The notes beneath the pieces were generated by a model. It had not been told where the DNA came from, did not search any database, and saw only the letters and a list, made by a program, of their open reading frames with translations. DNA of 64,000 nucleotides from Pontibacter fetidus (lineage in GTDB: Bacteria > Bacteroidota > Bacteroidia > Cytophagales > Hymenobacteraceae). Position 1 is the first letter of the stretch, and every line of letters begins with the position of its first letter. The DNA is taken from the NCBI RefSeq assembly GCF_010119545.1, contig NZ_JAAEAA010000002.1, forward strand, positions 62,001 through 126,000, read 5' to 3'. Below are positions 1-64,000 of the stretch, one piece after another. The position numbers and the translations under genes were made by a program.

Positions 1-696
1 GAATAATACCGGTTTACCTTTTGGTATGTGTATCTCCAGCGGGTTAACAATATCGTCCTGTGCATTCGGATCAGAGAAGTCAATACCAAATTCATTGGTA
101 GCGTCAATCAGGGTAGTTTTTGTAACACCAAGTTTACCATCCGGACCAGGGTATCTCACCATCCAGTTAAATTGCTTACCCATAACTTCCACTACTACCG
201 CATCAGCCGGCGCTGCACTTGTAATATTTGTCCAGGTCTTCCAGCCGGCAAATACAAGTATAGCCATAACTATAGCTGGGATCATAGTCCAGATAACTTC
301 TACTTTGTTGTTGTGCGGATAGTAGTAAGCACGCTTGTCATCTTTATGCTGGTATTTATATGAATACCAGAAAAGAAGAACCTGGGTGATCACGAACACG
401 ATACCAATGATGACCATTGTTGTCCAGAACAGGTCATCGGTCCAAACACCGTGCACAGAAGCTACCGGCTGGTTCATTTCGTCCCATGAGGCAGAAAAAG
501 ACCAGGCAAAGGCAATACCGCCTATTATAAGGAACAGTAATAATAATATACTGTTTACTTTATTACTTGTTTTAGTTGTTCCTGCTGCTCTCTGAGAAGA
601 CCCTCTGAAGATAGATGCCAGCGTTCCAATCCTGAAAAGAAGGAAAAGAACTACTAAAAGCAGAATTATGGATAAACCAATAGCGATCGTAATCAT
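1..696 (-). CDS. coxB: Cytochrome c oxidase subunit II (partial, runs off left edge)
   Basis: Subunit II of a haem-copper oxidase, which accepts electrons from cytochrome c through its CuA site in the periplasm. Reading the minus strand from the ATG at 696 gives 232 open codons to the window edge. Four hydrophobic segments lie at about residues 4-25, 48-66, 92-112 and 135-155; the last two, with the VEVIWTMIPA motif between them, form the classic COX2 hairpin, and the first pair is an N-terminal extension. The cupredoxin domain starts with EVMGKQFNWMVRYPG. The CuA ligands would lie off the edge, so the call rests on the N-terminal half. It starts 24 bases after actF and belongs to the same operon, as is usual where Alternative Complex III pairs with its oxidase. 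Confidence 0.93.
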   Translation of the reverse strand, partial: MITIAIGLSIILLLVVLFLLFRIGTLASIFRGSSQRAAGTTKTSNKVNSILLLLFLIIGGIAFAWSFSASWDEMNQPVASVHGVWTDDLFWTTMVIIGIVFVITQVLLFWYSYKYQHKDDKRAYYYPHNNKVEVIWTMIPAIVMAILVFAGWKTWTNITSAAPADAVVVEVMGKQFNWMVRYPGPDGKLGVTKTTLIDATNEFGIDFSDPNAQDDIVNPLEIHIPKGKPVLF

Positions 697-720
697 TATA
701 TTGTGTTTTTAGTAATTTCT

Positions 721-1980
721 CTAAACGTGATGGTGTATACTTTCTTCTATGAAAGGGTGGTTAACAGGTACCAAAGATGCTTTTGTTAAGCCTTTTGTAA
801 ATGTTACCAGGAATACGCCCAAGAAGATCAGTGTTGTACCAATTTCAATGAATCCTATTCCGGCATCACCACGCATTGTTCCAGGCATCATCATCAGGTA
901 AAAATCGAACCAGTGACCAATCAGAATTGCTATAGTTACAATTTTCAACATGATCATTTGACGCTTCGCATCTCTTGTCATCAAAACAAGGAAAGGGAAT
1001 GCAAAGTTTATGATTAGGTTAAAGAAGAAGATCCACTTGTAATGAGGGTCTAAACGATCCAGGAAGTAGATTGATTCTTCCGGAATGTTGGCATACCAGA
1101 TCAGCATGAACTGAGAGAACCAGATGTATGTCCAGAAGATAGAGAATGCAAATACAAACTTACCAAGGTCGTGCAGGTGGTTTGCATTAACTAATTTCAG
1201 GTAACCGTTCTGCTTCAGTATAACTACTGTTAACGTGATAGCTGACAAACCTGCTACAAACCAGCTGGCGAATACGTACCAGCCAAACATAGTTGAGAAC
1301 CAGTGTGTATCAATTGACAATACCCAGTCCCAGGCCGACATTGAAGATGACACACCAAATACTACCAGGAACATAGCCGAAATAGTAATGCTCTTGTTAT
1401 AGTATGTCAAACCTCCATGCAGATCTTCGTTGATTGAGTTTCTTCTTAACCAGTTAAAGAATAAGATCCATAGTGCAAAGAACACAACCATTCTAATTAG
1501 GAAGAACCAGAAGTTCAGGTAACCTGATTTACCGGCAATGATTGGGTCATAGCGCGGGTCATTTACATCGTACAGGTACTCGTGCGTCCAATGGAAAATA
1601 TCATGTCCACCAAACAGGAATACAACGATCATAACTATAGCACCGATCGGAAGGAAATAACCTAATGCTTCAGGTATACGCTTGATCAATACTGACCAGC
1701 CAGCGTAAGCAACATATTGTATCGCTACAAAGAATACCCCGATCAGGGCAATACCTGAAAAGTAAACGTTATTTAACCATAGGTTCAGAAACAAACGCTT
1801 TGTCCAGGATGCGGCTTCGTGACCTGCTGCTGCAGCTTCACCATGTCCGCCACCATGTTCCGCTCCACCACCTGCAGCCATCATAATGATACCTGCAATA
1901 AGCAGTATAACACCGATCGCTATCGTTAAGAAAAACTTGTTAGTTGTTTTTCGTGGTATAATGAGTCTTTCTTCTGTCAT
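721..1980 (-). CDS. actF: Alternative Complex III subunit ActF (NrfD/PsrC-like quinol-binding membrane protein)
   Basis: Integral membrane subunit of Alternative Complex III, the menaquinol:cytochrome c oxidoreductase that replaces bc1 in many Bacteroidota. The protein is 419 residues from the ATG at 1980 (MTEERLIIPRK); a longer reading would need a TTG three codons upstream, which is less likely. About ten transmembrane segments are visible, with a His/Gly/Ala-rich loop near residues 40-60 after the first. The family is the paralogue of ActC. It lies 26 bases after actE and 24 before coxB, so all are probably one transcript. Function is inferred from gene order and family. Confidence 0.93.
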   Translation of the reverse strand: MTEERLIIPRKTTNKFFLTIAIGVILLIAGIIMMAAGGGAEHGGGHGEAAAAGHEAASWTKRLFLNLWLNNVYFSGIALIGVFFVAIQYVAYAGWSVLIKRIPEALGYFLPIGAIVMIVVFLFGGHDIFHWTHEYLYDVNDPRYDPIIAGKSGYLNFWFFLIRMVVFFALWILFFNWLRRNSINEDLHGGLTYYNKSITISAMFLVVFGVSSSMSAWDWVLSIDTHWFSTMFGWYVFASWFVAGLSAITLTVVILKQNGYLKLVNANHLHDLGKFVFAFSIFWTYIWFSQFMLIWYANIPEESIYFLDRLDPHYKWIFFFNLIINFAFPFLVLMTRDAKRQMIMLKIVTIAILIGHWFDFYLMMMPGTMRGDAGIGFIEIGTTLIFLGVFLVTFTKGLTKASLVPVNHPFIEESIHHHV

Positions 1981-2006
1981 TATTTTCAAAAATTAATGCT
2001 TCAGTC

Positions 2007-13906: not shown

Positions 13907-16438
13907 TTGTCAGAGCTACTCAATTTTAATTACCCGCCCGAGCCGGCCGTGGACCGTGTTACGTTGTTTGCTGACGTAATTCTACCGCTGCCGCTGCCGA
14001 AGCTATATACCTACCGCATCCCCTTCGAAATGAACGACGATGTGATGGTGGGTGCGCGTGTAATTGTGCAGTTTGGCTCTAAAAGGATACTGAGCTGTAT
14101 AGTTGCCGACATCCATGAGCAGGCTCCCGCCGATTACCAGGCCAAGTATATTATGGATGTGTTGGATGATACGCCTATAGTTACCGTACCGCAGCTAAAG
14201 CTTTTCAAGTGGATCGCGGATTACTATATGTGCACTTTGGGTGAAGTGATCAATGCGGCATTACCATCGGCTTTAAAACTGAGTAGTGAGTCACGTATTC
14301 AATTGCACCCGCACTTTAACCCTGAAGAAGACGATATTCCGCTGGCAACCCAGGAAGTGAAGATCATTTATGCGCTGCAGCAAAACCAGGCCATGACCTT
14401 TACCGACATCGGCAACCTGCTGCAGATCAAAAGTTACCACAAGTTCATTAAGTCTCTGATCCAGAAAGAGGCGATCATTATATATGAGCAGGTAAGCGAT
14501 AAGTTCTCGCCGAAGGTGGTGAAGAAAATACGTTTGTCAGAGCATTTTGTACAGGGAGAAGGCATGCTGGAAGAGTTGTTTGAGCAGCTAACCCCAAAAC
14601 CAAAACAGCTTGACATTCTACTGAATTACCTGCAGAAAGTACCGGTGCACCAAGATGTAAACCTGAACTATAAAGGCATCGAGAAATCTGTTCTTACCAA
14701 TAACCCGCACCTGTCCAAATCCTCTATCGATTCGCTGATAAAGAAAGGTGTGTTGGAGCAGTTCGACCAGATCATTTCCCGTTTCCCGGTTGATGATTCG
14801 CCGCGCCAGCTGCCAATGAATCTTTCAGAACACCAGTTACAGGCAAAGGACGAGATACTTGGCTTGTTTAAGGAGAAAGATACGGTGCTGCTGCATGGTG
14901 TTACGGGTAGTGGTAAAACCGAAGTATACATCGACCTGATAAAGCATGCCCTGGAAGGCGGCGGCCAGGTGCTATACTTACTCCCCGAAATTGCCCTGAC
15001 GGCCCAGATCGTAACCCGCCTGATGAAAGTGTTTGGCGAAAAACTGGGTGTGTATCATTCCAAGTTCTCAGATAATGAGCGTGCCGAAGTATGGCAGGGC
15101 GTATTGTCAGGCAGGTTCCAGGTGGTAGTGGGTGTGCGGTCAGCTGTTTTCCTGCCTTTCCATAATTTGTCGCTGATAATTGTGGATGAGGAGCATGAAT
15201 CGAGTTACAAGCAATACGACCCGGCTCCGCGCTACAATGCCCGCGAAACTGCTTTGATGATGGCGCATTTGCAGGGTGCAAAAACATTGCTGGGCTCAGC
15301 TACGCCTTCTATAGAAACCTACTATAATTGTAAAACCGGCCGCTGGGGACTGGTAACGATGCTTAAACGCTTTGGCGAAGCTCAGCTACCGGATGTAGAA
15401 CTGGTAAATACCCGCGAAGAGCAGCAGCGCAAAACCATGCACAGCCACTTTTCGAGCAAGCTTCTAGATGGTATAGAGCAGCGCCTGAAACGCCACGAGC
15501 AGGTCATCCTGTTCCAGAACCGCCGCGGTTATGCCCCTTTCATAGCCTGCGACGAATGTTCCTGGATTCCGAAATGCCGCAACTGTGCTGTCAGTTTATC
15601 TTACCATAAATTTGGGAACGAGCTGCGCTGCCATTATTGCGGCTACCATGAACACATGCCATCTGATTGCCCTGCCTGCGGTGCTACCACGCTTAAAAGT
15701 ATGGGCTTCGGTACCGAAAAGATAGAAGACGAGCTGAAGCTGATATTACCAGACGCAGAAGTGCAGCGCATGGACCTGGATACCACCAAAAAGAAGAACA
15801 GCTACCAACAGATCATCGCCGATTTTGAGAACGGCAAAACCAATGTGCTTGTAGGCACACAAATGGTAACCAAGGGCCTCGATTTTGAGAATGTAAGCCT
15901 GGTGGGTATCCTTAACGCCGATAGCATCATCCATTTCCCGGACTACAGAGCACATGAGCGGGCTTATCAGTTATTTGTGCAGGTTAGTGGGCGCGCCGGC
16001 CGTAAAGGCAAGCCGGGCACCGTGTTTATACAAACCCGCGACCCGATGCAGGCAATTTTCAGAAAAGTGATCAGTAACGATTACGAAAGCCTATATGAAC
16101 ATGAGATAGAAGAGCGGATGCGTTTTTCGTATCCGCCGTTTGTGCGCATGATTAAGGTAACAGTAAAACATGCTGATGAACGTACCTCTGAGAACGCGGC
16201 TATAGTTCTGGCAAAAGACCTGACCGATAAATTAGGTAAGCAACAGGTGCTGGGCCCTGAAATCCCATATATCTTCCGAATACGCAACCTGTTCCTGAAC
16301 GAGATCCATATAAAGCTTCCACGTGAAAACGTGAACCTGCGTAGTGCCAAAGGCTTAATTGCACAGGCCATACAGCAGCTATACTTGTTACCCGACTTTA
16401 AAGGAATAAAAGTAGTAGCTGATGTTGACCCGATGTAA
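13907..16438 (+). CDS. priA: Primosomal protein N' (replication restart helicase PriA)
   Basis: An 843-residue superfamily 2 DNA helicase that reloads the replisome at stalled forks. The N-terminal DNA-binding domain begins RVTLFADVILPLPLPKLYTYRIP. Walker A is GVTGSGKTE near residue 331 and the DEEH box is near 425. Eight Cys in four CxxC pairs (about 547-595: CDEC, CRNC, CHYC, CPAC) bind two zinc ions. The C-terminal helicase motifs (GTQMVTKGLDF, QVSGRAGR) are intact. The start is a TTG: an in-frame TAG lies only 12 bases upstream, and the next ATG would cut into the conserved N terminus. Confidence 0.95.
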   Translation: MSELLNFNYPPEPAVDRVTLFADVILPLPLPKLYTYRIPFEMNDDVMVGARVIVQFGSKRILSCIVADIHEQAPADYQAKYIMDVLDDTPIVTVPQLKLFKWIADYYMCTLGEVINAALPSALKLSSESRIQLHPHFNPEEDDIPLATQEVKIIYALQQNQAMTFTDIGNLLQIKSYHKFIKSLIQKEAIIIYEQVSDKFSPKVVKKIRLSEHFVQGEGMLEELFEQLTPKPKQLDILLNYLQKVPVHQDVNLNYKGIEKSVLTNNPHLSKSSIDSLIKKGVLEQFDQIISRFPVDDSPRQLPMNLSEHQLQAKDEILGLFKEKDTVLLHGVTGSGKTEVYIDLIKHALEGGGQVLYLLPEIALTAQIVTRLMKVFGEKLGVYHSKFSDNERAEVWQGVLSGRFQVVVGVRSAVFLPFHNLSLIIVDEEHESSYKQYDPAPRYNARETALMMAHLQGAKTLLGSATPSIETYYNCKTGRWGLVTMLKRFGEAQLPDVELVNTREEQQRKTMHSHFSSKLLDGIEQRLKRHEQVILFQNRRGYAPFIACDECSWIPKCRNCAVSLSYHKFGNELRCHYCGYHEHMPSDCPACGATTLKSMGFGTEKIEDELKLILPDAEVQRMDLDTTKKKNSYQQIIADFENGKTNVLVGTQMVTKGLDFENVSLVGILNADSIIHFPDYRAHERAYQLFVQVSGRAGRKGKPGTVFIQTRDPMQAIFRKVISNDYESLYEHEIEERMRFSYPPFVRMIKVTVKHADERTSENAAIVLAKDLTDKLGKQQVLGPEIPYIFRIRNLFLNEIHIKLPRENVNLRSAKGLIAQAIQQLYLLPDFKGIKVVADVDPM

Positions 16439-16492
16439 ACTATAGTTTCCGGCCATACACCAGCTATAGTATACAGGAAAGCAACTATAGTT
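16438..16492. repeat. Cluster of three CTATAG palindromes
   Basis: The gap between priA and the next, convergent gene holds exact AACTATAGTT copies at 16438-16447 and 16483-16492, with a partial copy (GCTATAGTAT) between. The first begins inside the priA stop codon. There is no other obvious terminator here. Confidence 0.75.
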
Positions 16493-17382: not shown

Positions 17383-17481
17383 AGCTGTTTTTGAAAGTTG
17401 AGTTAGTAAAATTTAACAGGAACTATATGATAAATGCCTACTAGTTAGGTGCAGCACAAAATCAGGTATTACAACTATAGT

Positions 17482-18366
17482 TTATATCATTCCGGGGCAA
17501 TACTTATCCCAATATGCAAGCAACATTTGCTCACCAGCGGGTGTAAAGCTTTTGCCCATGAATGGTGTAGGTGTAAACTCCCCAAAAACGGCACCTTTAT
17601 CTGTAGCATAAAAGTCAATCCTCACAAAAATCTCATATACTTTGCTTAGCCTTTTGGCTTGTTCCAGCATTTCGGGGAGGCAGGCCGGAGGTGGCTGATA
17701 GGCCCCTTTCGCATAGTAGGTGTTTATCTCTTTTATCTGCTTCCAATTTTCGTCATAACAAGTTGTAAATCCTTTGTGAGGGCTAAGCCTGTTAATAAGT
17801 TGTATACAAGCTATTTCTCCATTAAACAGGTATATTTTGTAGTCGTCCGGAATTTTATAATTGCCTTCTTCTGTCCTGAGAAATTCCTGCACTATAAACT
17901 CCAACCTGGAATCATTCCGGACGGCCTCACCCAGTTTTGCCACTATTGCATCTAAGGTATAGTGCTGCTGGTCCATCAGGTTAAAAGTGCCATCCATCAG
18001 AAATACCAGTTTAGATCCAGCTCCGATAGTTGGTTTTATAAAAAATTTGTCCGGTAAATTCTGGGTATAGATTGTACTCACATCGCTACCTTGCCAGTAA
18101 ATTTCGGGTACCAGGCAGCCATACTTTTTAGCAAACTCTATGGAATTGTGCTTATTACTGAGCTTTCGCTGCCAGTATTTTATATCCTGCCATTTAGTTA
18201 GTGGGTCTTGCGCATCCATAGGAATGGCTTTTATAGTTTTACCTTCAGGTGTCCCCCAGAACTCGCTGTTCCGATGCCTTATTCGTTTCGCGAAGCCTCC
18301 CCCCTCACGGTTTAACACCTTATTTATAAAAGAACTGGTATAAGTCTTAAGTTGTGTGCTAAGCAT
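17482..18366 (-). CDS. TupA-like ATP-grasp protein (paralogue 2)
   Basis: A 294-residue tandem paralogue of the 16504-17382 gene, with the same blocks: KFFIKPTIGAGSKLVFLMDG, EFIVQEFLRTEEGNYKIPDDYKIYLFNGEIACIQLINRLSPHKG and VRIDFYATDKGAVFGEFTPTPFMG. Both share an N-terminal pattern (NKVLNREGGGFAKRIRHRNSEFWGTPEG) that looks specific to this subfamily. It lies 99 bases upstream of paralogue 1 and the two are probably cotranscribed. An exact AACTATAGTT (17473-17482) touches its stop codon. The ligase substrate is not known. Confidence 0.8.
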   Translation of the reverse strand: MLSTQLKTYTSSFINKVLNREGGGFAKRIRHRNSEFWGTPEGKTIKAIPMDAQDPLTKWQDIKYWQRKLSNKHNSIEFAKKYGCLVPEIYWQGSDVSTIYTQNLPDKFFIKPTIGAGSKLVFLMDGTFNLMDQQHYTLDAIVAKLGEAVRNDSRLEFIVQEFLRTEEGNYKIPDDYKIYLFNGEIACIQLINRLSPHKGFTTCYDENWKQIKEINTYYAKGAYQPPPACLPEMLEQAKRLSKVYEIFVRIDFYATDKGAVFGEFTPTPFMGKSFTPAGEQMLLAYWDKYCPGMI

Positions 18367-19279: not shown

Positions 19280-19297
19280 GCTGAACTATAGTTTTGA

Positions 19298-39900: not shown

Positions 39901-42900
39901 GTTACAGTAGTGCAGCCGGTTAGCAATAACATTATAGGCTCCGACCAGACTATATGCAGCGGCAGCATGCCAGCCACGCTCACAGGGTCGTTACCAAATG
40001 GAAGCGGCAACTATAGTTACCAATGGGAACGCAGTGAAGACGGCATCAACTTTACAGCCATCAGCAATGCCACTACCCAGAACTATACGCCAGGTGCGCT
40101 TAACATTACCACCTGGTTCCGCAGAGAAGTAAAAACAACGGGCCCTTGTGCCGAGCATAGCAGTAACACGATCCGGATCACGATCACCCCGATCCCATCT
40201 ACGGCTGTTGCTGATAATGCCACTATCTGCGAAGGAAGCACTGCTACCCTGACCGTAAAGGATGTAACCCCAGGTTATACGTACCGCTGGTATACTACCC
40301 CTGTGGGCGGCGGCGCCATTGTGTCGGGCTCCTCTTTTACAACAGGCGCGCTCGAAACCACTACTACTTTTTACGTGGAAGCCGTGAATGCCACAGGTTG
40401 CAGCAGCGCCAGAAGAACGGTAACGGTAACGGTAATGCCGCAGCCGGAAGCGCCCTCAGCATCGGATGTAGCGATCTGTGCCGGTGAGCAGGCAACCCTG
40501 GCCATAGAAAATGTAAATGCAAGCCTTACTTATCGCTGGTTTGATGGCAACGGTACCTTACTGGCGACTGGCACCACCTATACTACTGCCGTACTCAATA
40601 GCAACAGCACCTACTATGTAGAGGCTGTAACATCGGGCACGCCAAGTTGCGTAAGTGGTCGCACGTCGGTGGCTGTTAATGTAGCTACACGCCCTGCCAC
40701 TCCGCTTGCCGATGATGCAAGTGTGTGTGCCGGTACTGCTGCCCAGCTTTCGGTTAAGAGCGTGATACCGGGTATAACTTATAAGTGGTATACAGTAGCA
40801 ACAGGCGGCACCCCGGTATTTATCGGTTCAAACTACACGACGGCTGCCCTTACGTCTGACAGAACATATTATGTAGAGGCCGCTACAGCATCGGGCTGCA
40901 CCAGTGTAAACCGCGAAGCTGTAGTTGTAAAAGTTATACAGCAGCCGGCCATGCCTGTTGTAGCCGACAGAACCGTATGCGCCGGCAGTACTGTAGTGCT
41001 TAGCGTAACCAACCCCGATGCCAACCTGATGTACCGCTGGTATGACCAGAGTGGTGCGGCACTTGCTACCGGCACTACCTATACTTCACGGGCACTTACA
41101 GCCAGCACACTATATTATGTAGAGGCAGTTACTACAACTTCTCCGGGTTGCACCAGCGCCCGCGAAACAGTAAATGTAACCGTAACGCCACTACCTGCCA
41201 CTCCGGTTGCGGATAATGCTACGATTTGTGCAGGTGCCACAGCAACGTTGTATGTAAAGAATGCGACGCCGGCTGTAGTTTATAAGTGGTACGATGATAC
41301 AGAAACCCTGCTGTTTACCGGAACTACGTTTACAACACCTACCCTTACTGCTGACGCCATTTACTATGTAGAGGCAAGCTCTGGGGCAGGCTGCGTAAAC
41401 CAGGCCCGCACCGTAGTAACCGTGTATGTAACGCAGCCGATCACGAACAATAACATTGCTACTGACCAGACTATCTGCAGTGGCGATGTACCGGTTAAGT
41501 TAACAGGCACACAGGCCATGGGCGGCGGCGGCAACATCACTTACCAGTGGGAAAGCAGCGAAGACGGCATCAACTTTAACCTGATTGTGAATGCAACCGG
41601 CAAAGATTACCAGCCGGAGGCACTGCATGTAACAACCTGGTTCAGAAGAAGAGCTACCATCCCGGACGGACTATGCCCGGACCAAGTAAGTAACATCATC
41701 AAAGTAAGAGCGATACCATTACCTTCTACTCCGGTTGCTTCCAACATTACGATCTGTGCAGGCGCAAAAGCTATACTTTCTGTTTCTCCGGAGAATGGCT
41801 ATACGTACCGCTGGTTTAGTGTAGCCAGCGGCGGCACAAGCCTGGCAACAGGTACGATGTTCTCTGTAGAAGGCCTGCAGTCAGAAACCAGGTACTATGT
41901 AGAGGCTGTAAACGGTAATGGCTGTATTAGTCCGCGTAAGCAGGTAACGGTATTTGTAACACCACTACCGGCCACACCGCAGGCAAACGACCAGCTTATT
42001 TGCGCAGGAGGCAAAGCAACTCTGTTTGTAACAGACCCGGATGTGAAACTGAACTACAGATGGCTGGACAGCAACGGCAACCCGGTAGCAAATGGCTCTT
42101 CATTCACAACCGGTAACCTGACCCAGAATACCATTTATTATTTAGAAGCTTACACAACCACCACACAAGCCTGCACCAGCCAGCGCAAAGCAGTAACTGT
42201 TAACGTACAGCAGCTGCCAGGTACACCTGAAGTAGACAATGCTATAGTTTGTGCAGGAACCGGTACCACCTTAACTGTGAAGCAGGCCAACACCGGCTAT
42301 ACTTACAAGTGGTATAGTGTTGCGACAGGCGGCGTGCCACTAGCTACAGGTCAATCGTTTGAGACCGGTGCCCTTACCTCGGACAGAACCTACTTTGTGG
42401 AAGCAGTAAACAGCTCGGCATGTACCAGCAGCCGCACACCGGTGAAGGTGACTGTTACACCACAACCAGCTACACCACTGGCCAACAATGCCTTTATATG
42501 TGCCGGCGAAACTGTAACCCTTGCTGTAATCAACCCGGACATGACCTTAAACTATAGATGGTATGACGGAGCAGGCAAGTTACTGGCAACTGGCAATACA
42601 CATGCTGTAAGTGGTCTGAAAGCAAGCACAACGTACTATGTAGAGGCTATATCCGGAAACGGTTGTGTGAGCCCTGCCCGCAAAGCAGTTGTAGTAAGCG
42701 TAGCGCAGTTACCGGCCACCCCGGTTGTGAGCAACGCCTCCAGCTGTTCCGGCGAAACAGTCACGTTGTTTGTAAAGAACCCTGACCCGGCCCTGCAATA
42801 CAGATGGTACGAAGATGCTACAGGCACAATCCTGCTTGGCTCCGGTGTTTCTTATACATCAGCCAATGCCCTTTACACCAGCAGGTCTTACTTTGTAGAG

Positions 42901-46448: not shown

Positions 46449-46467
46449 CCAAAACTATAGTTGGTAC

Positions 46468-50458: not shown

Positions 50459-50735
50459 TTTGCAGCGTTTACAAAAGGTGGGCCCTTTCAGACTTTACCA
50501 ATTACCTCTTGTTGTTTCAAAAATCCAAGACCTGAACTCATCTGCAAAGAAGGTCAACGTCTGGGTAACAACCTAAGGACAAAGAAGTCCACGGCAGACT
50601 TGCTTCCTGACAAGGATGTCCGGGAGAGCAACACATCAGTTTAAACTATAAGTAAGGTTGGGTCCCAACTATAGTTAGGCAAGAGTGGGGACGGTTGCGC
50701 CATTAAAGCCAACAACCGGCCCTAATCAAGTAAGT
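50459..50735. other. Intergenic stretch with short inverted repeats
   Basis: About 277 bases. Features are GGAC/GTCC around 50577-50590, a palindrome GTTGGGTCCCAAC near 50658, and an exact AACTATAGTT at 50667-50676. The segment 50530-50640 is richer in GC than usual intergenic DNA here and has short frames with stops, so it may be a decayed gene or an RNA. I could not identify it. Confidence 0.4.
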
Positions 50736-51936: not shown

Positions 51937-52737
51937 ATGAGAAACCCTTATCCTGAAAAAAAGAAACACCGCTTAGCTATACTGATTGACGGCGACAATG
52001 CCCAGCCTAGCCTTATAGTTAAATTACTGGCTGAAGCCGGCAAGTATGGACAGATAACGATACGTCGTATTTACGGCGACTGGACTACGCCGCAAATGAA
52101 CGGCTGGAAAGAATGCCTGAACCACCACGCCATACAACCGATACAACAGTTCAGGTATACGATAGGTAAAAATGCCACCGACAGCGCCCTTATTATAGAT
52201 GCTATGGATTTGCTGCACAGCGGCCTGGTTGATGGTTTCTGTATCGTATCATCAGACTCAGACTATACCCGGCTGGCCACACGCATACGCGAAGCCGGTA
52301 TTTTTGTAATGGGCATTGGGCAGCGCAAAACGCCAAAGCCGTTCGTTAATGCCTGCAACATCTTCATTTTCACCGAAAACTTGATCGAGCATATTGATGA
52401 AAAGCAGATTGAGGATGCGGAACGTGTAGCAGAAAACGGCACAAACCATCAGCGCCCTAACCCAATACCTTTGCTGAAAGAAGCCTTTAGTATGGCTGCC
52501 GACGAAGATGGCTGGGCGCACCTTGGTGCAATAGGCGTAAACCTGCGCCAACTCGACCCCAGCTTTGACCCACGTACTTTTGGTTACGGGCAGTTGTTGC
52601 AACTTATAAAAGCGCACAAAGACCTGTTCACGATCCGGAAAGAAGACGACAAAGGTCCATCAGCGGTATATGTAAAGCGCGCCAGCAAAAGGCGTAACAG
52701 CAAAAAACCAAACTCCTCATCAGCAGAGCAACTATAA
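51937..52737 (+). CDS. NYN-domain (LabA/DUF88-like) protein with OST-HTH/LOTUS domain
   Basis: A 266-residue protein. The N-terminal 150 residues are a NYN/PIN-like nuclease domain with acidic residues in ILIDGDNAQ, NATDSALIIDAMDLL and SSDSDYTRLATRIREAG, the expected metal-binding set. The C-terminal part (NPIPLLKEAFSMAADEDGWAHLGAIGVNLRQLDPSFDPRTFGYGQLLQLIKAH) is an OST-HTH/LOTUS winged helix that binds RNA in other proteins. The tail is basic and Lys/Ser-rich. A single-strand RNA-processing role is inferred. An exact AACTATAGTT begins inside the stop codon. Confidence 0.88.
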   Translation: MRNPYPEKKKHRLAILIDGDNAQPSLIVKLLAEAGKYGQITIRRIYGDWTTPQMNGWKECLNHHAIQPIQQFRYTIGKNATDSALIIDAMDLLHSGLVDGFCIVSSDSDYTRLATRIREAGIFVMGIGQRKTPKPFVNACNIFIFTENLIEHIDEKQIEDAERVAENGTNHQRPNPIPLLKEAFSMAADEDGWAHLGAIGVNLRQLDPSFDPRTFGYGQLLQLIKAHKDLFTIRKEDDKGPSAVYVKRASKRRNSKKPNSSSAEQL

Positions 52738-52769
52738 ACTATAGTTACGCAGAACATTTATCAAACAGA

Positions 52770-53186: not shown

Positions 53187-55910
53187 ATGACTAAATTTTT
53201 AAGTTTTGTTATGATCTGCCTCTTCACGGTTGGCAACATAACCGCCCAGAACAAACTTGACAAAGAATTGCAAAGCCTGCTGCAAACTACTACCGGCGCG
53301 GTAGGAGTTGTTGTAACCTTCCACGGCAATGCTGCTCCCACTACCTCCAATATAGCCTTACTTAACTCACTCGGTATTACCAGCGGTGTTACTTTTAAAT
53401 CACTCCCGATTGCCGGCGTACTAGCTACTACAGCTCAGATAAATGCCCTGGTAAATAACGATCAGGTGCGGTCTGTTTACCTGAATAAAAAGCTTACCTA
53501 TTACAACTATAACGGCACCCACCTGACCGGCGTGCGCAGGCTGCGTACCGACAAAGAGATGATCGCCCGTAACAAAGGCATTCCGGTATCAGGGAAAGGC
53601 ATTACCGTGATGATAAATGATAGCGGGGTGGATGGCACCCACGAAGACCTGAAGTTCGGGACACACCTGGTACAAAACGTGCTGGGCTCCACAAACCTGA
53701 ACGGAGTAGACGCAATGCTGCCTGTAACATGGGTTGAGAATGTACCAAATACAGATACTAACTCGGGCCACGGTACGCACTGTGCAGGCTCGGTGGGCGG
53801 AACCGGCGCTAAATCGAATGGCTTATACGAGGGTGTTGCACCAGGCGCTACGCTGGTTGGTTATGGCTCGGGGGCTGCGCTGTTAGTGCTCGATGCTATT
53901 GGCGGTTTTGATTATGCTCTTACCCACCAATACCAGTACGGCATCCGGGTTATTTCTAACTCGTGGGGCACCAGCGGCGATTTTGACCCGAACAACCCGG
54001 TAAACGTTGCCTCTAAAAAAGCGTATGACCGCGGCATTGTTTCGTTATTTGCGGCTGGTAACGATGGCCCGAGCTCTGACACACACAACCCCTACGCCAT
54101 TGCGCCATGGGTAATTTCTGTTGGTGCCGGCGACAAGTATGGCCGCCTAGCAGATTTCTCGTCGAGAGGTGTAAAAGGCGAAGGTGGCACTTTTACGATG
54201 GACGGCGAAACCTGGACCTATGAGAACAGACCAACTATAGTTGCACCCGGCGTTGACATTGTTTCAACCCGCGTTATTGGCCCGGTAGCATCCCTGGAGG
54301 CACAACACGACATCGAAACCCTGGACCCGGCACACGTACCGTACTATACCCACATGAGCGGTACTTCTATGGCTACGCCACACACCGCAGGTATAGTTGC
54401 GCTTTTACTGGAAGCTAACCCTTCTCTTTCTCCGGCCCAGGTAAAAAGCATCCTTCAGAAAACGGCTACCAATATGCCAAACTACGAGCCTTGGGAAGTA
54501 GGCGCAGGGTATGTAAATGCCTATGCTGCCGTGGACCACATTTACCGCAACACCACATTTGGCACGTACGCTAACCTTACCCGTACCTTTAACAGCAGTG
54601 TAAATTCTGTTACAGAGACCACACCTTTTACTATTGACTATAACCCGTTGCTGGCAGCCAATAACCAGATGACCTTTACGGTGGCGGAAGGCACCAACAG
54701 CATTGAAGCAAAAATAAGTGCAGGAGGTTTGTTAGGAGAATCTGGTAACCCGGTCAATCTTATACTTTTAAGTCCGGATGGCACACAATACAGAGCCGGT
54801 ATACCTGTTACGTTTAGCCTGACTTACGACAGAGGTGTTGCCGTAGCATCACCGATGCCTGGCCAGTGGACATTAAAAGTAGAAGGTTTGCAAGGTATAG
54901 CATTCCCGGAAACTATAAACGGTAAAATAAGCCTACAGCGTGTAAACGGCACCTCCGGCATGACTGACATTGCTGGCCACCCTGCCGAAGCAGCTATTAA
55001 AATGGCAGTTGCTGCCCGCTTAGTAGATGGATTGAATGGTGCCTTTAAGCCTGATGATCTACTGAAGCGCATTCAGTTAGCTGATTACCTGATGATGGGC
55101 CAGGCAGTACGCCAGTTTATGCCAACAAACGGCGCTGTTACGTTCACAGACCTGAAAGGCAGCGAAGTTTTACTTGGGGAATCGGTAGTGGCCAAAGGTG
55201 CTGCACTTAGAGACAGACTGCACGCGTACAATGGTGTAATGCTGCCAACCAGTACAGGTAAATTCTCACCGACCGGAAACGTGAACAGAGCCAGTTTAGC
55301 TTACTCGTTAGTGCAGGCACTTGGCTTACAGGAATTTGCACTGGAAAGAAATGGCAAAGCAGTAACAGTTACGGTAGACGGCAAGAAAATTCCGGTAGAT
55401 GACGCCAAGCAAATACCAGCCGGCCTGGAAGGTTATGTAAGTGTAGCCCTGGAGTTAGGTCTGATTAATGCCTATTACAGCGTTACTCAAGGCCCGCTTG
55501 ACCTGTTCCCGACGATGCATGCTACTTTTAAGCCAACACAAAACGTAACCCGCGCCGAGTTTGCTGTTATCGTTACCAGAACCTACAACTCCTGGAACGC
55601 GACCACACAGCCGGTTGCCACATCCACAACTTCAGCAATAAAAACTGCTAACGCCGAAGAAAGCTACGCCTACCCTAACCCAAGCACCGGTCGTAGCACA
55701 ATCAGTTATACAGTTACTGCAGAAGGCCCTGTGGCTATAGAGGTATATGATGTAATGGGCAGAAAAGTACAGACAGTTGTTTCAGAAAAACAGGCTGCCG
55801 GCCGCCATGCCCTTCAGTTTGACGGAAGCAAATTACCAGGTGGCACTTACCTGTACAGAATTACTGCTAACGGCAAAACTTCTACCAACCGATTGATCCT
55901 TACGAAATAG
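53187..55910 (+). CDS. Subtilisin-like serine protease (S8) with SLH-like motifs and type A T9SS sorting domain
   Basis: A 907-residue secreted protease with a signal peptide (MTKFLSFVMICLFTVGNITAQ), an inhibitor-like propeptide (about 30-110) and an S8 domain with Asp145 (NDSGVDGTHED), His195 (NSGHGTHCAG) and Ser394 (SGTSMATPHTAG). Then come a beta-rich domain, and two segments resembling S-layer homology motifs: about 590-645 (GHPAEAAIKMAVAARLVDGLNGAFKPDDLLKRIQLADYL) and about 747-805 (YVSVALELGLINAYY ... FKPTQNVTRAEFAVIVTRTY). The C terminus (YAYPNPSTGRSTISYTV ... GGTYLYRITANGKTSTNRLILTK) is a type A T9SS domain. It is likely surface-bound or released. Confidence 0.93.
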   Translation: MTKFLSFVMICLFTVGNITAQNKLDKELQSLLQTTTGAVGVVVTFHGNAAPTTSNIALLNSLGITSGVTFKSLPIAGVLATTAQINALVNNDQVRSVYLNKKLTYYNYNGTHLTGVRRLRTDKEMIARNKGIPVSGKGITVMINDSGVDGTHEDLKFGTHLVQNVLGSTNLNGVDAMLPVTWVENVPNTDTNSGHGTHCAGSVGGTGAKSNGLYEGVAPGATLVGYGSGAALLVLDAIGGFDYALTHQYQYGIRVISNSWGTSGDFDPNNPVNVASKKAYDRGIVSLFAAGNDGPSSDTHNPYAIAPWVISVGAGDKYGRLADFSSRGVKGEGGTFTMDGETWTYENRPTIVAPGVDIVSTRVIGPVASLEAQHDIETLDPAHVPYYTHMSGTSMATPHTAGIVALLLEANPSLSPAQVKSILQKTATNMPNYEPWEVGAGYVNAYAAVDHIYRNTTFGTYANLTRTFNSSVNSVTETTPFTIDYNPLLAANNQMTFTVAEGTNSIEAKISAGGLLGESGNPVNLILLSPDGTQYRAGIPVTFSLTYDRGVAVASPMPGQWTLKVEGLQGIAFPETINGKISLQRVNGTSGMTDIAGHPAEAAIKMAVAARLVDGLNGAFKPDDLLKRIQLADYLMMGQAVRQFMPTNGAVTFTDLKGSEVLLGESVVAKGAALRDRLHAYNGVMLPTSTGKFSPTGNVNRASLAYSLVQALGLQEFALERNGKAVTVTVDGKKIPVDDAKQIPAGLEGYVSVALELGLINAYYSVTQGPLDLFPTMHATFKPTQNVTRAEFAVIVTRTYNSWNATTQPVATSTTSAIKTANAEESYAYPNPSTGRSTISYTVTAEGPVAIEVYDVMGRKVQTVVSEKQAAGRHALQFDGSKLPGGTYLYRITANGKTSTNRLILTK

Positions 55911-56060: not shown

Positions 56061-57575
56061 ATGCCCACGCAGCCACAGCAGACACGTTTCTATACTTATA
56101 CTAACCGAATACTGATTGCAGTTGGGCTCTATACTTTATTACCCTTTCTTATACTTGCCTTTTACAGCCACCCGCAAGCCGACGATTTTAGTTTTGCTGT
56201 GCGTGACCGCGAACTGGATTATTTAACTGTTTTTCAGCAATACTATAACTACTGGACTGGTCGCTACTTTAGCACTATAACCTTATTCCGCATTAACCCC
56301 ATGATCTGGGGCTCACTTTCTGTCTATAGACTTAGTTCTATACTTTTACTCATTCTGTTTTCCGGTAGTATATACTTTATACTATCAACTATAACCCAAA
56401 AAACTCTTTCTAAAACGGGGCTTACTTCCTTAGCAGCCTTGCTATTTGCGTTGTACCTGTTACAATTGCCAAACCCTTCCGAAGGGTTCTATTTTTTCTC
56501 GACCTACGCTACGTACCAGTTGCCTAATATCATGCTATTGGTAATGCTGGCTATAGTTTATAAATTCTTTCAGGCACGAAACTCATGGGTAAAGCAGGTG
56601 TACATTGGGCTGGCAGCTATTGGTTCCGCCGCTATAGTTGGCTCCAACGAAATGGCGCTGGTCATCGCTTTTACAACTGTGGCCTTCATAACTATAGTTA
56701 ATCTTAAAAACCCGGAGGCACGGCCATACTTACTATTCCTTTTTGTAGTTTGCATGGTCTGCTGTTTTATAGCGGTAATGGCGCCCGGCAACTATAACCG
56801 CATGAACGAACACCCAAATGGTGGCAAGCTGATCTGGTCTGTGGTTTATGCAGGATTTATGACGGGGCTTTCTTTTTATCGTTGGCTACTCCCTATACTG
56901 GCGGCATCTATAGTTTACATCTACTGCTTCGGGTTGCCACTGGCCGACAAGGTAAAGCACAACAGGTTGTTTCAGGTTGATATTCGGTTGGTTTTACTAT
57001 ACTTTCTGGTTACTATTTTCCTGATGAATTTTGTGTTTGCCTGGTCTACGGGCGAGCGGCCGACCCCACGATTGGAGAATGTAATCTACTTCTTCTTTCT
57101 GTTTGGGTGGTTTTATGGGTTGCAAGTAGCCATTACTAAGTATAAAACTTTTTTCAGCGCAACTACTATTTCTCCGGTTCCAGCAGCCTTTGCGCTGCTG
57201 ATCTTTTTACTAAGTATTGTGCAGATAGATAATAATATCAGCACAGCTTATGTAGACCTGGCATCGGGTAAAGCTGCTGCTTATGATAAAGCCCTGAACC
57301 AACGGTATACTTTACTCAGAAATTCGGATTGCGCTGAATGTATAGTTGCTCCACTGCCAGCTATCCCTAAATCCATTTACTTTGCTGATATCGTTTCCCG
57401 CTCCGAAAAACCTGAAAATGGGATTGACATGACGTGGATAAACAAAGGAGTAGCGGCTTACTTTGGCAAATCAGAAGTCTACCTGGCTGCACCAAACCCA
57501 CCAGTTCAGGATAACCTTACTACCCTTCGGCAGGCCGGCAAAAGCACCCTCAAAAAAGAATCTGTCATTAAATAA
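56061..57575 (+). CDS. DUF6056-like polytopic membrane protein, possible GT-C glycosyltransferase
   Basis: A 504-residue membrane protein with about ten to twelve transmembrane helices and a C-terminal soluble domain of about 110 residues. After the first helix comes HPQADDFSFAVRDRE; an acidic DDF pair at this place is typical of GT-C fold glycosyltransferases that use lipid-linked sugars, and of the DUF6056 family. GT-C activity is inference. No sugar-export or lipid-carrier genes lie nearby. It is monocistronic, and CTATAG motifs are dense in its coding sequence. Confidence 0.7.
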   Translation: MPTQPQQTRFYTYTNRILIAVGLYTLLPFLILAFYSHPQADDFSFAVRDRELDYLTVFQQYYNYWTGRYFSTITLFRINPMIWGSLSVYRLSSILLLILFSGSIYFILSTITQKTLSKTGLTSLAALLFALYLLQLPNPSEGFYFFSTYATYQLPNIMLLVMLAIVYKFFQARNSWVKQVYIGLAAIGSAAIVGSNEMALVIAFTTVAFITIVNLKNPEARPYLLFLFVVCMVCCFIAVMAPGNYNRMNEHPNGGKLIWSVVYAGFMTGLSFYRWLLPILAASIVYIYCFGLPLADKVKHNRLFQVDIRLVLLYFLVTIFLMNFVFAWSTGERPTPRLENVIYFFFLFGWFYGLQVAITKYKTFFSATTISPVPAAFALLIFLLSIVQIDNNISTAYVDLASGKAAAYDKALNQRYTLLRNSDCAECIVAPLPAIPKSIYFADIVSRSEKPENGIDMTWINKGVAAYFGKSEVYLAAPNPPVQDNLTTLRQAGKSTLKKESVIK

Positions 57576-57757: not shown

Positions 57758-57954
57758 ATTGCTGTCCACTCCCATCTTCTCTAATCCCAAACTATAGTTC
57801 TTCCGTTTGCTAAAAGTAGTTGCTTAAATACTGGCCGCAGGTAACAGGAAAATATGTCGCACCTACCTTTTTAGGCTTCGAAATTAGTCAGACAAAACCG
57901 TAACTGTAGTTGTGCTTCGTGACAGAATGACATAAAAAGTTAGCCTGAAACCGG

Positions 57955-61907: not shown

Positions 61908-61930
61908 CCTGCCACTGCAATACTTATCAG

Positions 61931-62054
61931 CCCTCGCTCGCGTCCCGCCACGTTGCCGAGCAACTATAGTTACGCTATGATATCTTAACTATAAACTATA
62001 GTTTAAGCGGCCTGAGGCCGTGGGTAGCTTACACTCTCGGGACGCGAGCAAGGG
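61931..62054. mobile_element. MITE-like element with 17-base terminal inverted repeats
   Basis: CCCTCGCTCGCGTCCCG (61931-61947) and CGGGACGCGAGCAAGGG (62038-62054) match at 16 of 17 positions as inverted ends of a 124-base unit. The interior holds two exact AACTATAGTT copies (61962-61971 and 61994-62003) and a GCGGCCTGAGGCCG palindrome. There is no open frame. No clear target-site duplication was seen. Confidence 0.65.
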
Positions 62055-62138: not shown

Positions 62139-62693
62139 TTAGTTTGTAGCTGCGCCATAGGTATCGGCTTCTACGGTGGCGGTGCCGTCTGCTTTTATAG
62201 TTACTTTAAAAATGTGATCGTATTTGCTGTCGGCTACTTCGGCAAATGGTTTTTTAGCGCCTAAGGCTTCTACTATAGGCAATATGGTGTTTGAGTGACC
62301 TACTACTACCACCGTTTTCCCGGCATTATTCTGAAGGATCTGCTGCTTTAATGCATTAAAATCATGGGCTTCGTAGGTATTTATAGTTAGCTTGTTTGCT
62401 TCTGCCAGGGGCTTTACAGTTAAGCTGTTGCGTTTATACTTGGTACTGTAAACGGCATCAACCTTTTTGCCTTTTAAATAAGTGGCTAACGCCTTTGCAC
62501 GTGCTTCGCCGGCCGGGGTAAGCGCAGGGTCCTGGTCTGTGGTATCGGTGGTTACTTTTTCGGCATGTCGTACCACGTATACTATAGTTGGTTTTGCCTT
62601 ATCAGCCACATTTGTATCAGCGGCCTGGTTGCACGACCAAATTAAGCCAAAGGATAAAACAAGTATAAACCGGATGTAAAAAGGGAGTTTCAT
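62139..62693 (-). CDS. Histidine phosphatase superfamily (SixA/phosphoglycerate-mutase-like) lipoprotein
   Basis: A 184-residue protein with an N-terminal signal ending in WSCNQ, a likely lipobox, so probably an envelope lipoprotein. The catalytic motif is VVRHAEK (His nucleophile), followed by the second His in VVVGHSNTI. PALTPAGEARAKALATYLKGKKVDAVYSTKYKR is typical of SixA-like short phosphatases. The substrate is unknown. It lies 34 bases after the TPR gene on the same strand. Confidence 0.88.
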   Translation of the reverse strand: MKLPFYIRFILVLSFGLIWSCNQAADTNVADKAKPTIVYVVRHAEKVTTDTTDQDPALTPAGEARAKALATYLKGKKVDAVYSTKYKRNSLTVKPLAEANKLTINTYEAHDFNALKQQILQNNAGKTVVVVGHSNTILPIVEALGAKKPFAEVADSKYDHIFKVTIKADGTATVEADTYGAATN

Positions 62694-62727
62694 AAGTTAG
62701 CGAGTTTATAGTTTAAGTAATTTAAAG

Positions 62728-64000
62728 TTAGTGTATTGCTGTAACGCCCAGTACACGTTTAGCCTGCGCATTTTTTCCCTCGCGGCGTAACAAATCGGCT
62801 AGTTGCAGGCGGGCGTTATAGTGGTACTCATTTTTTATAAGTGCCGCCTTGTAAGATTTCTTTGCTTTACGGGGCTCATCCATTTTTTCCCACAAAACTC
62901 CGACGGCTGTTAAGCGCTCGGCCATTTCGGTTGGCGTTTCGGGGCGAGGCTGTTGCTTTAACAACGTAGTTGCCTTCTCTACTTCGCCCAGGCTGGCCAG
63001 CAAAGCTACCAGTTTATAAGCATCGGTACGTAATTTATTCTTGCCCGCTAAAAGCGGCTCTAACGTAACTATAGCCGAGTCTTTTAAACCTAATGCCAGC
63101 TGGTATTCTGCCATACGCACCGTGTAAGCCGACCGTAGCGTGCCGCTTGCCATTAGTATGCGCTGCGCGTTTTGTAAGGTAATTAATGCTTCTTTATGCT
63201 TTCCCTGAGCGGCCAGTACATCGGCGTATTGCTGCCGTAGTTCGTAGTTCTGTGGTTTCAGGGCTACAAGCCTGGCCAGTTCTGCTTCGCTTTCAGGGGC
63301 TTTGCCGGTGGTGCCTTTCAGCCAGTGGGCATAGGCCAGGGCTTCGTCGCGCCGGTCGCGGAGGTACGTTGATACGGTTGGTGCATCTTTCACATAACTT
63401 TCTGCTAAAATAATAGCTTCCGGTAGCCGCCCATACGAGGCGTATAGTTTTGCAAAAGCCATCGTGTTCGCCGCTTTCGTCATCAGGTCATCTTCCAGTT
63501 GCAGAGCTTTCCGGTATAGTTCGGCCTGCTGTTTCAGAGCTTCCGTTTCATCCAGTTTGTTATCGCGGCTCATGGCTTCCAGTAGCTCCGCACGTGCAAC
63601 ATATACAGGGGCGTATTTCGGGTTTAAGTTTTCTGCTTTTGCGAGCCAGGTTTCTGCATCGTTATACTTTTTCTGATATTGTTTTACCCGGGCGTATGCC
63701 AGTAGCGCAGGCTGGTACGTAGCATCCCAGGTAAGGGCAGTATCCAGCAAAGCGGTGGCCTGGCTATAGTTGCGGCCTGCCAGCGCTCCCTCCGACAGGT
63801 TTAAGTATACCTGCGCCCAGTTGCCGGCCATTGCCTGTTTGTTGCCCGCCAGGTAAGCCCGCTGCCTTTTTACCAGTTCATCCAGAAAACTATACAGTTC
63901 AGGGTCTTTGGCTTTGAGGTCGGCGGTGGTGTTGATGGATTTATGGTTGAGCGGATGCACTTTTACAGGCTCGAAATACGCCGGATAGGTTTGCGCCAGG
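62728..64000 (-). CDS. TPR-repeat protein (partial, N terminus off the right edge)
   Basis: At least 423 residues; the frame stays open to the window edge (upstream residues read LAQTYPAYFEPVKVHPLNHKS), so the true start lies outside. A GTG at 63960 is not taken as the start. From about residue 70 of the visible part onward the sequence is a solenoid of TPR-like helical pairs (ATALLDTALTWDATYQPALLAYARVKQYQKKYNDAETWLAKAENLNPKYAPVYVARAELL and further units). A scaffold or peptidase-partner role is possible; the missing N terminus would decide. It precedes the phosphatase gene by 34 bases. Confidence 0.8.
   Translation of the reverse strand, partial: LAQTYPAYFEPVKVHPLNHKSINTTADLKAKDPELYSFLDELVKRQRAYLAGNKQAMAGNWAQVYLNLSEGALAGRNYSQATALLDTALTWDATYQPALLAYARVKQYQKKYNDAETWLAKAENLNPKYAPVYVARAELLEAMSRDNKLDETEALKQQAELYRKALQLEDDLMTKAANTMAFAKLYASYGRLPEAIILAESYVKDAPTVSTYLRDRRDEALAYAHWLKGTTGKAPESEAELARLVALKPQNYELRQQYADVLAAQGKHKEALITLQNAQRILMASGTLRSAYTVRMAEYQLALGLKDSAIVTLEPLLAGKNKLRTDAYKLVALLASLGEVEKATTLLKQQPRPETPTEMAERLTAVGVLWEKMDEPRKAKKSYKAALIKNEYHYNARLQLADLLRREGKNAQAKRVLGVTAIH

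What the first reader, a model, noticed from the sequence alone, without database searches (positions are those of the whole stretch)
1..64000. AACTATAGTT: a highly iterated palindrome resembling a HIP1-type signal
I located 18 exact copies of AACTATAGTT: 16438, 16483, 17473, 19284, 28360, 30562, 31383, 32559, 40009, 43023, 46453, 50667, 52737, 54233, 56690, 57790, 61962 and 61994 (start positions). A random 10-mer of this composition is expected about 0.1 times in 64 kb. Shorter forms (CTATAG, TATAGTT, AACTATA) are seen many tens of times but I did not count them all. Copies are in genes (read as Thr-Ile-Val or Tyr-Ser; the third frame has a stop) and in gaps. They are sparse in the act operon, the ribosomal genes and dnaK. 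The pattern resembles the iterated palindrome HIP1 of cyanobacteria. I do not know of a described equivalent in this phylum.
Basis: partly seen in the sequence, partly recalled or inferred. Interest (0 to 1): 0.75.

Follow-up and report, generated by a model that had tools for sequence, protein, structure and literature searches.

The report
Genus-wide iterated DNA word with dialects
Bacteria of the genus Pontibacter have thousands of copies of a short DNA word scattered through their chromosomes, kept by evolution and spelled differently in different branches of the genus; it resembles the self-recognition tags some bacteria use when taking up DNA, but what reads it is unknown.

Summary
AACTATAGTT occurs 18 times in the window and 1,087 times in the 4.07-Mb genome (reversed-word control: 5). 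Order-2 Markov and synonymous-codon models do not predict it. The palindrome, however, is not the basic unit. That is an asymmetric 8-mer, A-R-S-T-A-T-A-R, with 16,572 matches on the two strands of this genome (control 1,046). It is a Pontibacter trait: 39 of 50 genomes show at least 4-fold excess. It has clade-specific dialects: AAGTATAA (probably ancestral), AGGTATAG, and AACTATAG/A in the window's clade, where the word overlaps its own reverse complement and makes the palindrome. Codons inside motif copies are conserved well above the same codons elsewhere, with few exceptions only between genomes sharing the dialect; the window's genome keeps two. Four DNA-methyltransferase families do not track it, so the HIP1 explanation is not supported. 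The pattern is closest to DNA uptake sequences of Neisseriaceae (dialects, fixed core, permissive sites, overlapping dyads), but no full-length type IV pilus/type II secretion ATPase was found in 50 genomes. I favour a self-recognition or uptake-type molecular drive by an unidentified reader (about 0.4); a chromosome-binding protein under direct selection is the main rival.

The parts
16438..16447 (.). AACTATAGTT copy, starting on the last base of ORF 13907-16438; 45 bp from the copy at 16483
16483..16492 (.). AACTATAGTT copy in convergent intergenic gap
17473..17482 (.). AACTATAGTT copy at the edge of ORF 17482-18366(-)
19284..19293 (.). AACTATAGTT copy, between ORFs
28360..28369 (.). AACTATAGTT copy in ORF 22777-30168(-)
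30562..30571 (.). AACTATAGTT copy, between ORFs
31383..31392 (.). AACTATAGTT copy in ORF 30880-33453(+)
32559..32568 (.). AACTATAGTT copy in ORF 30880-33453(+)
40009..40018 (.). AACTATAGTT copy in ORF 33919-44775(+)
43023..43032 (.). AACTATAGTT copy in ORF 33919-44775(+)
46453..46462. AACTATAGTT copy just past ORF 45849-46448; between the ORFs kept, but inside the overlapping ORF 46378-46869 listed
50667..50676 (.). AACTATAGTT copy, between ORFs
52737..52746 (.). AACTATAGTT copy starting on the last base of ORF 51937-52737(+)
54233..54242 (.). AACTATAGTT copy in ORF 53187-55910(+)
56690..56699 (.). AACTATAGTT copy in ORF 56061-57575(+)
57790..57799 (.). AACTATAGTT copy, between ORFs
61962..61971 (.). 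AACTATAGTT copy in the convergent gap between ORFs 60880-61374(+) and 62139-62693(-); 32 bp from the next
61994..62003 (.). AACTATAGTT copy in the same gap, run on from an AACTATAA
1..64000 (.). Dispersed unit A-R-S-T-A-T-A-R in the window: AACTATA[AG] 82 forward + 64 reverse; AAGTATA[AG] 25 + 40; AGGTATA[AG] 9 + 12

Best explanation
SHOWN: Pontibacter chromosomes are rich in an asymmetric DNA 8-mer, ARSTATAR, with a TATA core and lineage-specific outer letters (AAGTATAA, AGGTATAG, AACTATAG/A). It acts at DNA level (both strands, nearly every reading frame that does not make it a stop, genes and gaps). Copies are retained far beyond chance between genomes that share the dialect and, with small exceptions, not between genomes that do not; some sites have changed dialect in place by one G/C transversion. 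In the window's dialect the word overlaps its own reverse complement, which yields the palindrome AACTATAGTT. INFERRED: a sequence-specific reader with these dialects gives copies an advantage and so drives their spread by point mutation at permissive sites.
For: Genome-wide excess over the reversed word of 4.5- to 15.8-fold in 39 of 50 genus genomes; the other 11 at 1.0 to 3.6. In an order-wide sample of 241 genomes (5 of the genus, 24 of other genera of the family) AAGTATAA is strongly enriched only in genus members. Three dialects, each derived one confined to one clade of an ActB tree. In G000 single changes in the TATA core leave 0.5- to 3.4-fold enrichment, outer changes 1.7 to 14.2; enrichment falls with mismatches 38.4, 3.8, 1.2, 0.9, a non-linear fall like that reported for uptake sequences (PMC1939737: abstract and passages). 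Codons inside copies are conserved beyond the same codons elsewhere: AACTATAR 220 of 249 against 140.9 (z 10.3, G048 to G025); AAGTATAR 172 of 196 against 96.7 (z 11.0, G052 to G029); not across dialects (G000 to G026, AAC 28 of 87 against 41.1); control words z -1.2 to 1.3 in 30 genome pairs. In-place switching: 105 AAGTATAA sites of G029 read AAGTATAA 17 times and AACTATAA 16 times in G041. Flanks are not conserved; copies sit in faster-evolving DNA. In G000 density between ORFs is 3 to 5 times that in ORFs, highest in convergent gaps: 10.8 per kb, tandem 5.8, divergent 4.7. For the H. influenzae uptake sequence about 65% lie in ORFs where about 86% is coding (PMC2346458 passage), roughly a 3-fold ratio by my arithmetic. 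Genomes with two dialects and overlapping dyads are both described for uptake sequences in Simonsiella muelleri (PMC3630211 section 11). Motif-poor genomes are larger (medians 5.8 and 4.6 Mb).
Against: No type IV pilus/type II secretion ATPase: PF00437 gives only short weak matches (at most 25.9 bits, about 60 of 370 positions; 3 of 50 genomes just over the cut-off). ComEC is in 50 of 50 genomes, motif-poor ones included, so it does not discriminate. For Pontibacter and natural transformation together one paper was listed, with one occurrence of each term (listing only). The first drop of enrichment, 10-fold, is much shallower than the 92- and 82-fold given for H. influenzae and N. gonorrhoeae. 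In the AAG group the core/outer contrast is weak (A7G 4.5; several outer changes 0.9 to 1.4), the gap/ORF ratio is about 2 for AAGTATAA and AAGTATACTT shows none. Inverted pairs around terminator-like hairpins exist, but only a handful among the 25 printed pairs, and the excess at one spacing comes largely from near-identical repeated sequences. The genome-size association is not corrected for phylogeny.
Confidence: 0.4

Rival explanations
1. The word is the binding site of an abundant chromosomal protein (nucleoid-associated or global regulator) and copies are kept by weak direct selection; dialects reflect changes in its DNA-binding surface.
For: Graded 8-bp specificity around TATA; dialect-specific conservation of copies; overlapping dyads could be dimer sites.
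Against: Copies sit in faster-evolving DNA and are densest in convergent gaps, not in promoter-bearing divergent ones. 16,572 matches of the degenerate word in one genome (both strands, overlapping dyads counted twice) would need selection on very many weak sites. No candidate protein was found.
Confidence: 0.3
2. A HIP1-type mechanism: a DNA methyltransferase plus biased mismatch repair converts near-matches into its recognition site.
For: High iteration and one-off forms, like HIPs. In the AAC clade the core CTATAG could be a type II recognition site (inference).
Against: PF01555 has no match in G025, G029, G032, G041 and G048; PF02086 matches in 3 of 16 genomes, not in G000; PF00145 in 23 of 50, none in G052, G055 and G026; PF07669 in 15 of 16, but as proteins of widely differing length. 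Single-mismatch forms are also enriched, and two of the three dialect words are not palindromes. Not excluded: other methyltransferase families.
Confidence: 0.13
3. A Chi-like recombination signal or self-marker read by a recombination nuclease.
For: Over-represented 8-mer that varies between lineages; AAGTATAR copies lean about 60:40 to the strand with positive GC skew in G000 contig C22 and in G029, G026 and G052.
Against: AACTATAA copies show no strand bias (125/115, 103/102, 73/79), and in G000 contig C1 AAGTATAR leans the other way (63/77). Sister genera do not show AAGTATAA. The excess is far above that of E. coli Chi (recalled).
Confidence: 0.1
4. By-product of composition, codon use or copies of mobile repeats.
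For: A composite intergenic repeat in G000 carries copies, and some AGG genomes hold a hexamer array near ActB. Markov models of high order, which contain the sub-words, absorb much of the 10-mer's excess.
Against: Copies in ORFs exceed synonymous-codon shuffles 28-fold (59 against 2.1); order-2 Markov 146-fold (111 against 0.76); codon-level conservation. The 130-bp windows around 16 repeat copies hold about 50 motif copies of some 2,077 AASTATAR in the same 622 kb; the wider repeat was not counted.
Confidence: 0.03

Closest known systems
DNA uptake sequence (DUS) dialects of Neisseriaceae
   Same: Thousands of copies; a core with clade-specific outer letters congruent with phylogeny; permissive and intergenic location; genomes with two dialects and overlapping dyad pairs (PMC3630211: passages and section 11).
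   Different: Different phylum and sequence; 8 bp; no full-length type IV pilus or type II secretion ATPase found, so no ComP-type receptor is expected; uptake never shown; inverted terminator pairs only occasional; mismatch fall shallower.
HIP1 and alternate HIPs of cyanobacteria
   Same: Genome-wide iterated word, one-off forms common, replacement by other words in some lineages (PMC4390886).
   Different: HIPs are palindromes linked to orphan methyltransferases; here the basic word is asymmetric and four methyltransferase families do not track it.
Uptake signal sequence (USS) of Pasteurellaceae
   Same: Short asymmetric word on both strands, over-represented outside genes, falling over-representation with mismatches (PMC1939737 and PMC2346458: passages).
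   Different: No AT-rich flanking tracts seen here (the USS tracts are recalled); receptor and competence system not identified.
Chi sites
   Same: Over-represented 8-mer differing between lineages.
   Different: No orientation bias for the window's dialect; strong excess seen in one genus only.

Membership tests
HIP (highly iterated palindrome) | Palindromic unit | tested here: not met
   640 of 3,556 AACTATA half-sites lie in perfect palindromes; AAGTATAA and AGGTATAG dialects are not palindromes
HIP (highly iterated palindrome) | Extreme genome-wide over-representation | tested here: met
   1,087 copies against 5 of the reversed word; 179-fold over order-2 Markov in 1.18 Mb
HIP (highly iterated palindrome) | Orphan methyltransferase with matching specificity | tested here: inconclusive
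   PF01555 and PF00145 in 50 genomes, PF02086 and PF07669 in 16, do not track the motif; PF02384 and other families untested; no orthology analysis and no methylome
DUS/USS (uptake sequence) | Dispersed short word on both strands, equal orientation | tested here: met
   8,365 forward and 8,207 reverse matches of ARSTATAR in the own genome
DUS/USS (uptake sequence) | Dialects congruent with phylogeny around a fixed core | tested here: met
   38 Pontibacter loci: 3 AAC, 1 bilingual, 12 AGG, 15 AAG, 7 none; derived dialects monophyletic on an ActB tree printed without support values; 4 species (ruber, roseus, FD36, lucknowensis) missing from the tree
DUS/USS (uptake sequence) | Inverted pairs at transcription terminators | tested here: inconclusive
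   Some clear hairpins flanked by AAGTATAA/TTATACTT, few in number
DUS/USS (uptake sequence) | Type IV pilus machinery for uptake | tested here: not met
   PF00437: short weak matches only in 50 genomes (up to 31 candidates a genome scored); all 14 control genomes ring, 13 over the cut-off
DUS/USS (uptake sequence) | ComEC channel | tested here: met
   PF03772 over the cut-off in 50 of 50, motif-poor genomes included, so non-discriminating; two matches carry an internal stop
DUS/USS (uptake sequence) | Preferential uptake of DNA bearing the word | not testable with these tools
   needs transformation or uptake assays
Chi | Orientation bias along the replichore | tested here: not met
   AACTATAR even on both strands of contiguous stretches; AAGTATAR about 60:40 in four stretches and reversed in G000 C1. 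Replichores themselves were not mapped; GC skew was the proxy

The most novel reading that the evidence does not exclude
A Bacteroidota genus runs a DNA self-recognition (uptake-type) code with at least three heritable dialects and bilingual species, read by a receptor unrelated to type IV pili: an uptake-sequence-like system new to this phylum and a new class of reader.
Probability: 0.3. Interest if true: 0.9.

Novelty: new variant of a known kind. Interest (0 to 1): 0.75.

Why it matters
Highly iterated words are understood mechanistically in few groups (to my knowledge mainly the uptake sequences of two proteobacterial families) and remain debated for HIP1. Pontibacter gives a natural experiment: about 50 sequenced species, three dialects, bilingual genomes and motif-poor lineages. 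If it is an uptake code, it would set species barriers to gene exchange in a free-living environmental genus; if it is a protein-binding code, it would be an unusually dense chromosome-wide binding system.

Tried and rejected
Methyltransferase as driver: four Pfam families searched (over 50 genomes; over 16 chosen genomes); no family showed a pattern shared by the motif-rich genomes; proteins were not compared for orthology.

Type IV pilus: PF00437, rejected for this genus at the sensitivity used. ComEC presence as a predictor of the motif: uninformative.

Codon use and composition: rejected as main cause. Chi-type polarity: not seen for the window's dialect.

First idea that G029 had simply lost the signal (CTATAG intact in 11 of 37 against 0.314 background): revised. 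With the codon-matched test G029 keeps both AAC and AAG copies, so G000, G029 and G052 are bilingual.

First idea that both motif-poor stretches L007 and L013 are foreign islands: L007 is the ribosomal/RNA-polymerase region; only L013 (35% GC, glycosyltransferases, Wzt-type transporter among 6 of 18 ORFs scanned) looks like a variable locus.

Reduced divergence around copies, as a repair or conversion tract would give: not seen; flanks are slightly more divergent.

Caveats: ORFs were called by a crude longest-ORF script. The codon test treats codons as independent, leaves out ORFs over 9 kb, and has small exceptions to dialect-specificity (G025 to G041, AAG 12 of 15 against 7.8, z 2.2; G026 to G000, AAC 5 of 5 against 2.7, z 2.2). 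In one search rows that merge a named locus with stretches of the same genome count overlapping bases twice, and AGG counts include a hexamer array (9 to 14 AGGTATAG copies in L262, L266, L268, L302); figures are free of the first problem. The equation of named loci with handles rests on equal contig lengths and positions. A tree of concatenated window genes agrees in joining G000 with G029, but places the other members of the clade somewhat differently from the ActB tree.

Full report
WHAT IS THERE. All 18 reported copies of AACTATAGTT are exact, against 0.12 expected. The genome holding the window (G000, 4,072,018 bases, 49 contigs) has 1,087 copies; the word read backwards occurs 5 times. 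In 464 kb of this genome order-2 Markov predicts 0.76 copies against 111 seen; order 3 predicts 4.9 and order 4, which contains more of the enriched sub-words, 28.8. Synonymous-codon shuffling of 446 crude ORFs predicts 2.1 against 59. CTATAG is 6,457 in G000 and 472 to 1,644 in the 12 other genus genomes of that sample.

THE UNIT IS NOT A PALINDROME. Pooling 1.18 Mb of the five strongest genomes, enrichment over order-2 Markov is 46.7 for AACTATAG, 16.4 for AACTATAA, 6.7 for AACTATAC and 2.0 for AACTATAT. With the other half ending in A or T next to TATA, the AAC half alone is 9-fold enriched. In G000 single changes in the TATA core leave 0.5- to 3.4-fold enrichment, while outer positions tolerate change (1.7 to 14.2); in the AAG group the contrast is weaker. 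640 of 3,556 AACTATA copies form the 320 perfect palindromes. The palindrome is what results when this dialect's word overlaps its own reverse complement; it is the strongest form (179-fold). Flanks carry little further information.

GENUS-WIDE DIALECTS. The genus is Pontibacter (named loci). ARSTATAR exceeds its reversed control in whole genomes by 4.5- to 15.8-fold in 39 of 50 genus genomes, G000 highest (16,572 against 1,046); the other 11 lie at 1.0 to 3.6. De novo 8-mer counts in fetched stretches show AAGTATAA, AGGTATAG or AACTATAG/A among the top words of most genomes, and none of them in G002, G007, G019, G024 and G030, with 20 to 40 kb each (G019 and G007 do show excess genome-wide, 5.0 and 3.6). 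One search gave 64 loci, of which I examined 41: of 38 Pontibacter loci 3 are AAC, 1 bilingual, 12 AGG, 15 AAG (P. oryzae weakly) and 7 none; Botryobacter ruber and two Hymenobacter, none. On an ActB protein tree (four species missing, no support values printed) AGG and AAC each mark one clade, AAG is spread over the rest, and the motif-poor species fall in two groups. AACTATAGTT itself is 1,087 to 1,477 in G000, G025, G032, G041 and G048, 104 to 330 in G029, G052 and G055, and 0 to 28 in the other 42 genomes. In an order-wide sample of 241 genomes, AAGTATAA is 42-, 23- and 16-fold over control in three of the five genus members, weak in two (2.7 and 1.8), and at most about 2.4-fold in any other genome that I see in the table (ratios worked by hand).

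IT IS A DNA-LEVEL SIGNAL KEPT BY EVOLUTION. Copies occur in both orientations and in nearly every frame that does not make them a stop; they exceed codon shuffles in the three dialects tested. In codon-matched comparisons, codons wholly inside motif copies are conserved beyond the same codons elsewhere. AACTATAR: 200 of 244 against 121.6 (G000 to G048), 220 of 249 against 140.9 (G048 to G025), 118 of 122 against 90.1 (G041 to G032). AAGTATAR: 172 of 196 against 96.7 (G052 to G029), 52 of 68 against 29.6 (G000 to G026). This is dialect-specific: AAC copies are not retained in AAG-only G026 (28 of 87 against 41.1), nor AAG copies in AAC-only G041 (G026 to G041, 22 of 41 against 18.6) or G048 (G000 to G048, 61 of 146 against 74.5). 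Small exceptions: G025 to G041, AAG 12 of 15 against 7.8; G026 to G000, AAC 5 of 5 against 2.7. Control words give z between -1.2 and 1.3 in all 30 pairs. G000, G029 and G052 retain both words. Sites switch in place: 105 AAGTATAA sites of G029 are AAGTATAA at 17 and AACTATAA at 16 in G041; more distant pairs show this less (57 sites of G026 in G000: 10 and 3).

WHERE. In G000, AACTATAG has 0.90 copies per kb of ORF and 3.31 per kb between ORFs; AAGTATAA in the AAG set 0.87 and 1.95, AGGTATAG in the AGG-rich set 0.33 and 1.14, while AAGTATACTT shows no such difference. Gaps between convergent genes are richest (10.8 per kb of AACTATAR; tandem 5.8, divergent 4.7; 55, 281 and 69 gaps). DNA around copies evolves slightly faster than average, with no conserved halo. 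The ribosomal/RNA-polymerase stretch and a 35% GC polysaccharide locus are poor in copies. Motif-poor genomes are larger (Spearman -0.61, n = 50; not corrected for phylogeny).

WHAT COULD DRIVE IT. A methyltransferase, as for HIPs (PMC4390886), should be shared by motif-rich genomes. PF01555, PF00145, PF02086 and PF07669 show no such pattern, though other families were not searched. The closest parallel is the DUS of Neisseriaceae (PMC3630211: passages and section 11 read): dialects congruent with phylogeny, an essential core, permissive location, two dialects in one genome, and in Simonsiella muelleri 1,294 occurrences arranged as overlapping dyad pairs. The fall of over-representation with mismatches (38.4, 3.8, 1.2, 0.9) is non-linear as described for uptake sequences, but shallower than their 92- and 82-fold first drop (PMC1939737: abstract and passages); the one-mismatch class here includes the neighbouring dialect words. 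Against membership: no full-length type IV pilus/type II secretion ATPase in 50 genomes, ComEC universal and uninformative, uptake untested. I therefore claim 'works like an uptake-type drive' at about 0.4 and do not file it as a DUS. A chromosome-binding protein under direct selection is the main rival (0.3).

PRINT. No paper in the held library contains any of the six words AACTATAGTT, AAGTATACTT, AAGTATAA, TTATACTT, AGGTATAG or CTATACCT as a whole word (words inside longer printed sequences are not matched). Searches joining uptake-sequence terms with Bacteroidetes found none. Of five papers with Pontibacter and 'palindrom' (listing) I checked one, PMC4511580, where the word is in the reference for a CRISPR tool. 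Two broader searches listed 10 of 15 and 12 of 38 papers: Neisseriaceae, Pasteurellaceae, cyanobacteria and others, one of them on intergenic TAACTGA direct repeats in Beggiatoaceae (PMC4679880, listing only); no Pontibacter paper on an iterated word among those listed. Preprints and most subscription papers are not covered.

Noticed in passing
L014:2388, L016:18697, L189:1065 and others (16 copies in the 558 kb of G000 loci): A composite intergenic element of several hundred bp contains AGGTCGCGACCT plus modules such as CTCCCTCTCCTG...GGAGAGGGCTGGGGTGAGG; its joints are crowded with AACTATAR copies. No Rfam match in L014, L016, L189.
   Followed up: partly
L262, L266, L268, L302 near 6.9 kb (L144:11906-11973 is the same genome as L302): Some AGG-dialect genomes carry a hexamer array (AGGTAT)n about 3 kb from ActB. 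The AAG and AGG 8-mers would also fit a period-6 reading, but single AAG copies are not followed by the next repeat unit.
   Followed up: partly
window 34972-43684: TATGTAGAGGC occurs 13 times in one orientation inside the 3,618-aa ORF 33919-44775, probably reflecting repeats within that protein gene.
   Followed up: no
L269 (P. sp. E15-1): A motif-poor species shows GGTATACC (count 12 on both strands, i.e. 6 sites) as its top 8-mer in 23 kb; possibly a further dialect.
   Followed up: no
G000 C22, G029, G026, G052 stretches: AAGTATAR copies lean about 60:40 to the strand with positive GC skew, while AACTATAR copies do not; G000 C1 leans the other way.
   Followed up: no
G009:C76:160505-161305; G034:C1:2771217-2771876: The ComEC match carries an internal stop codon in two motif-rich genomes.
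   Followed up: no
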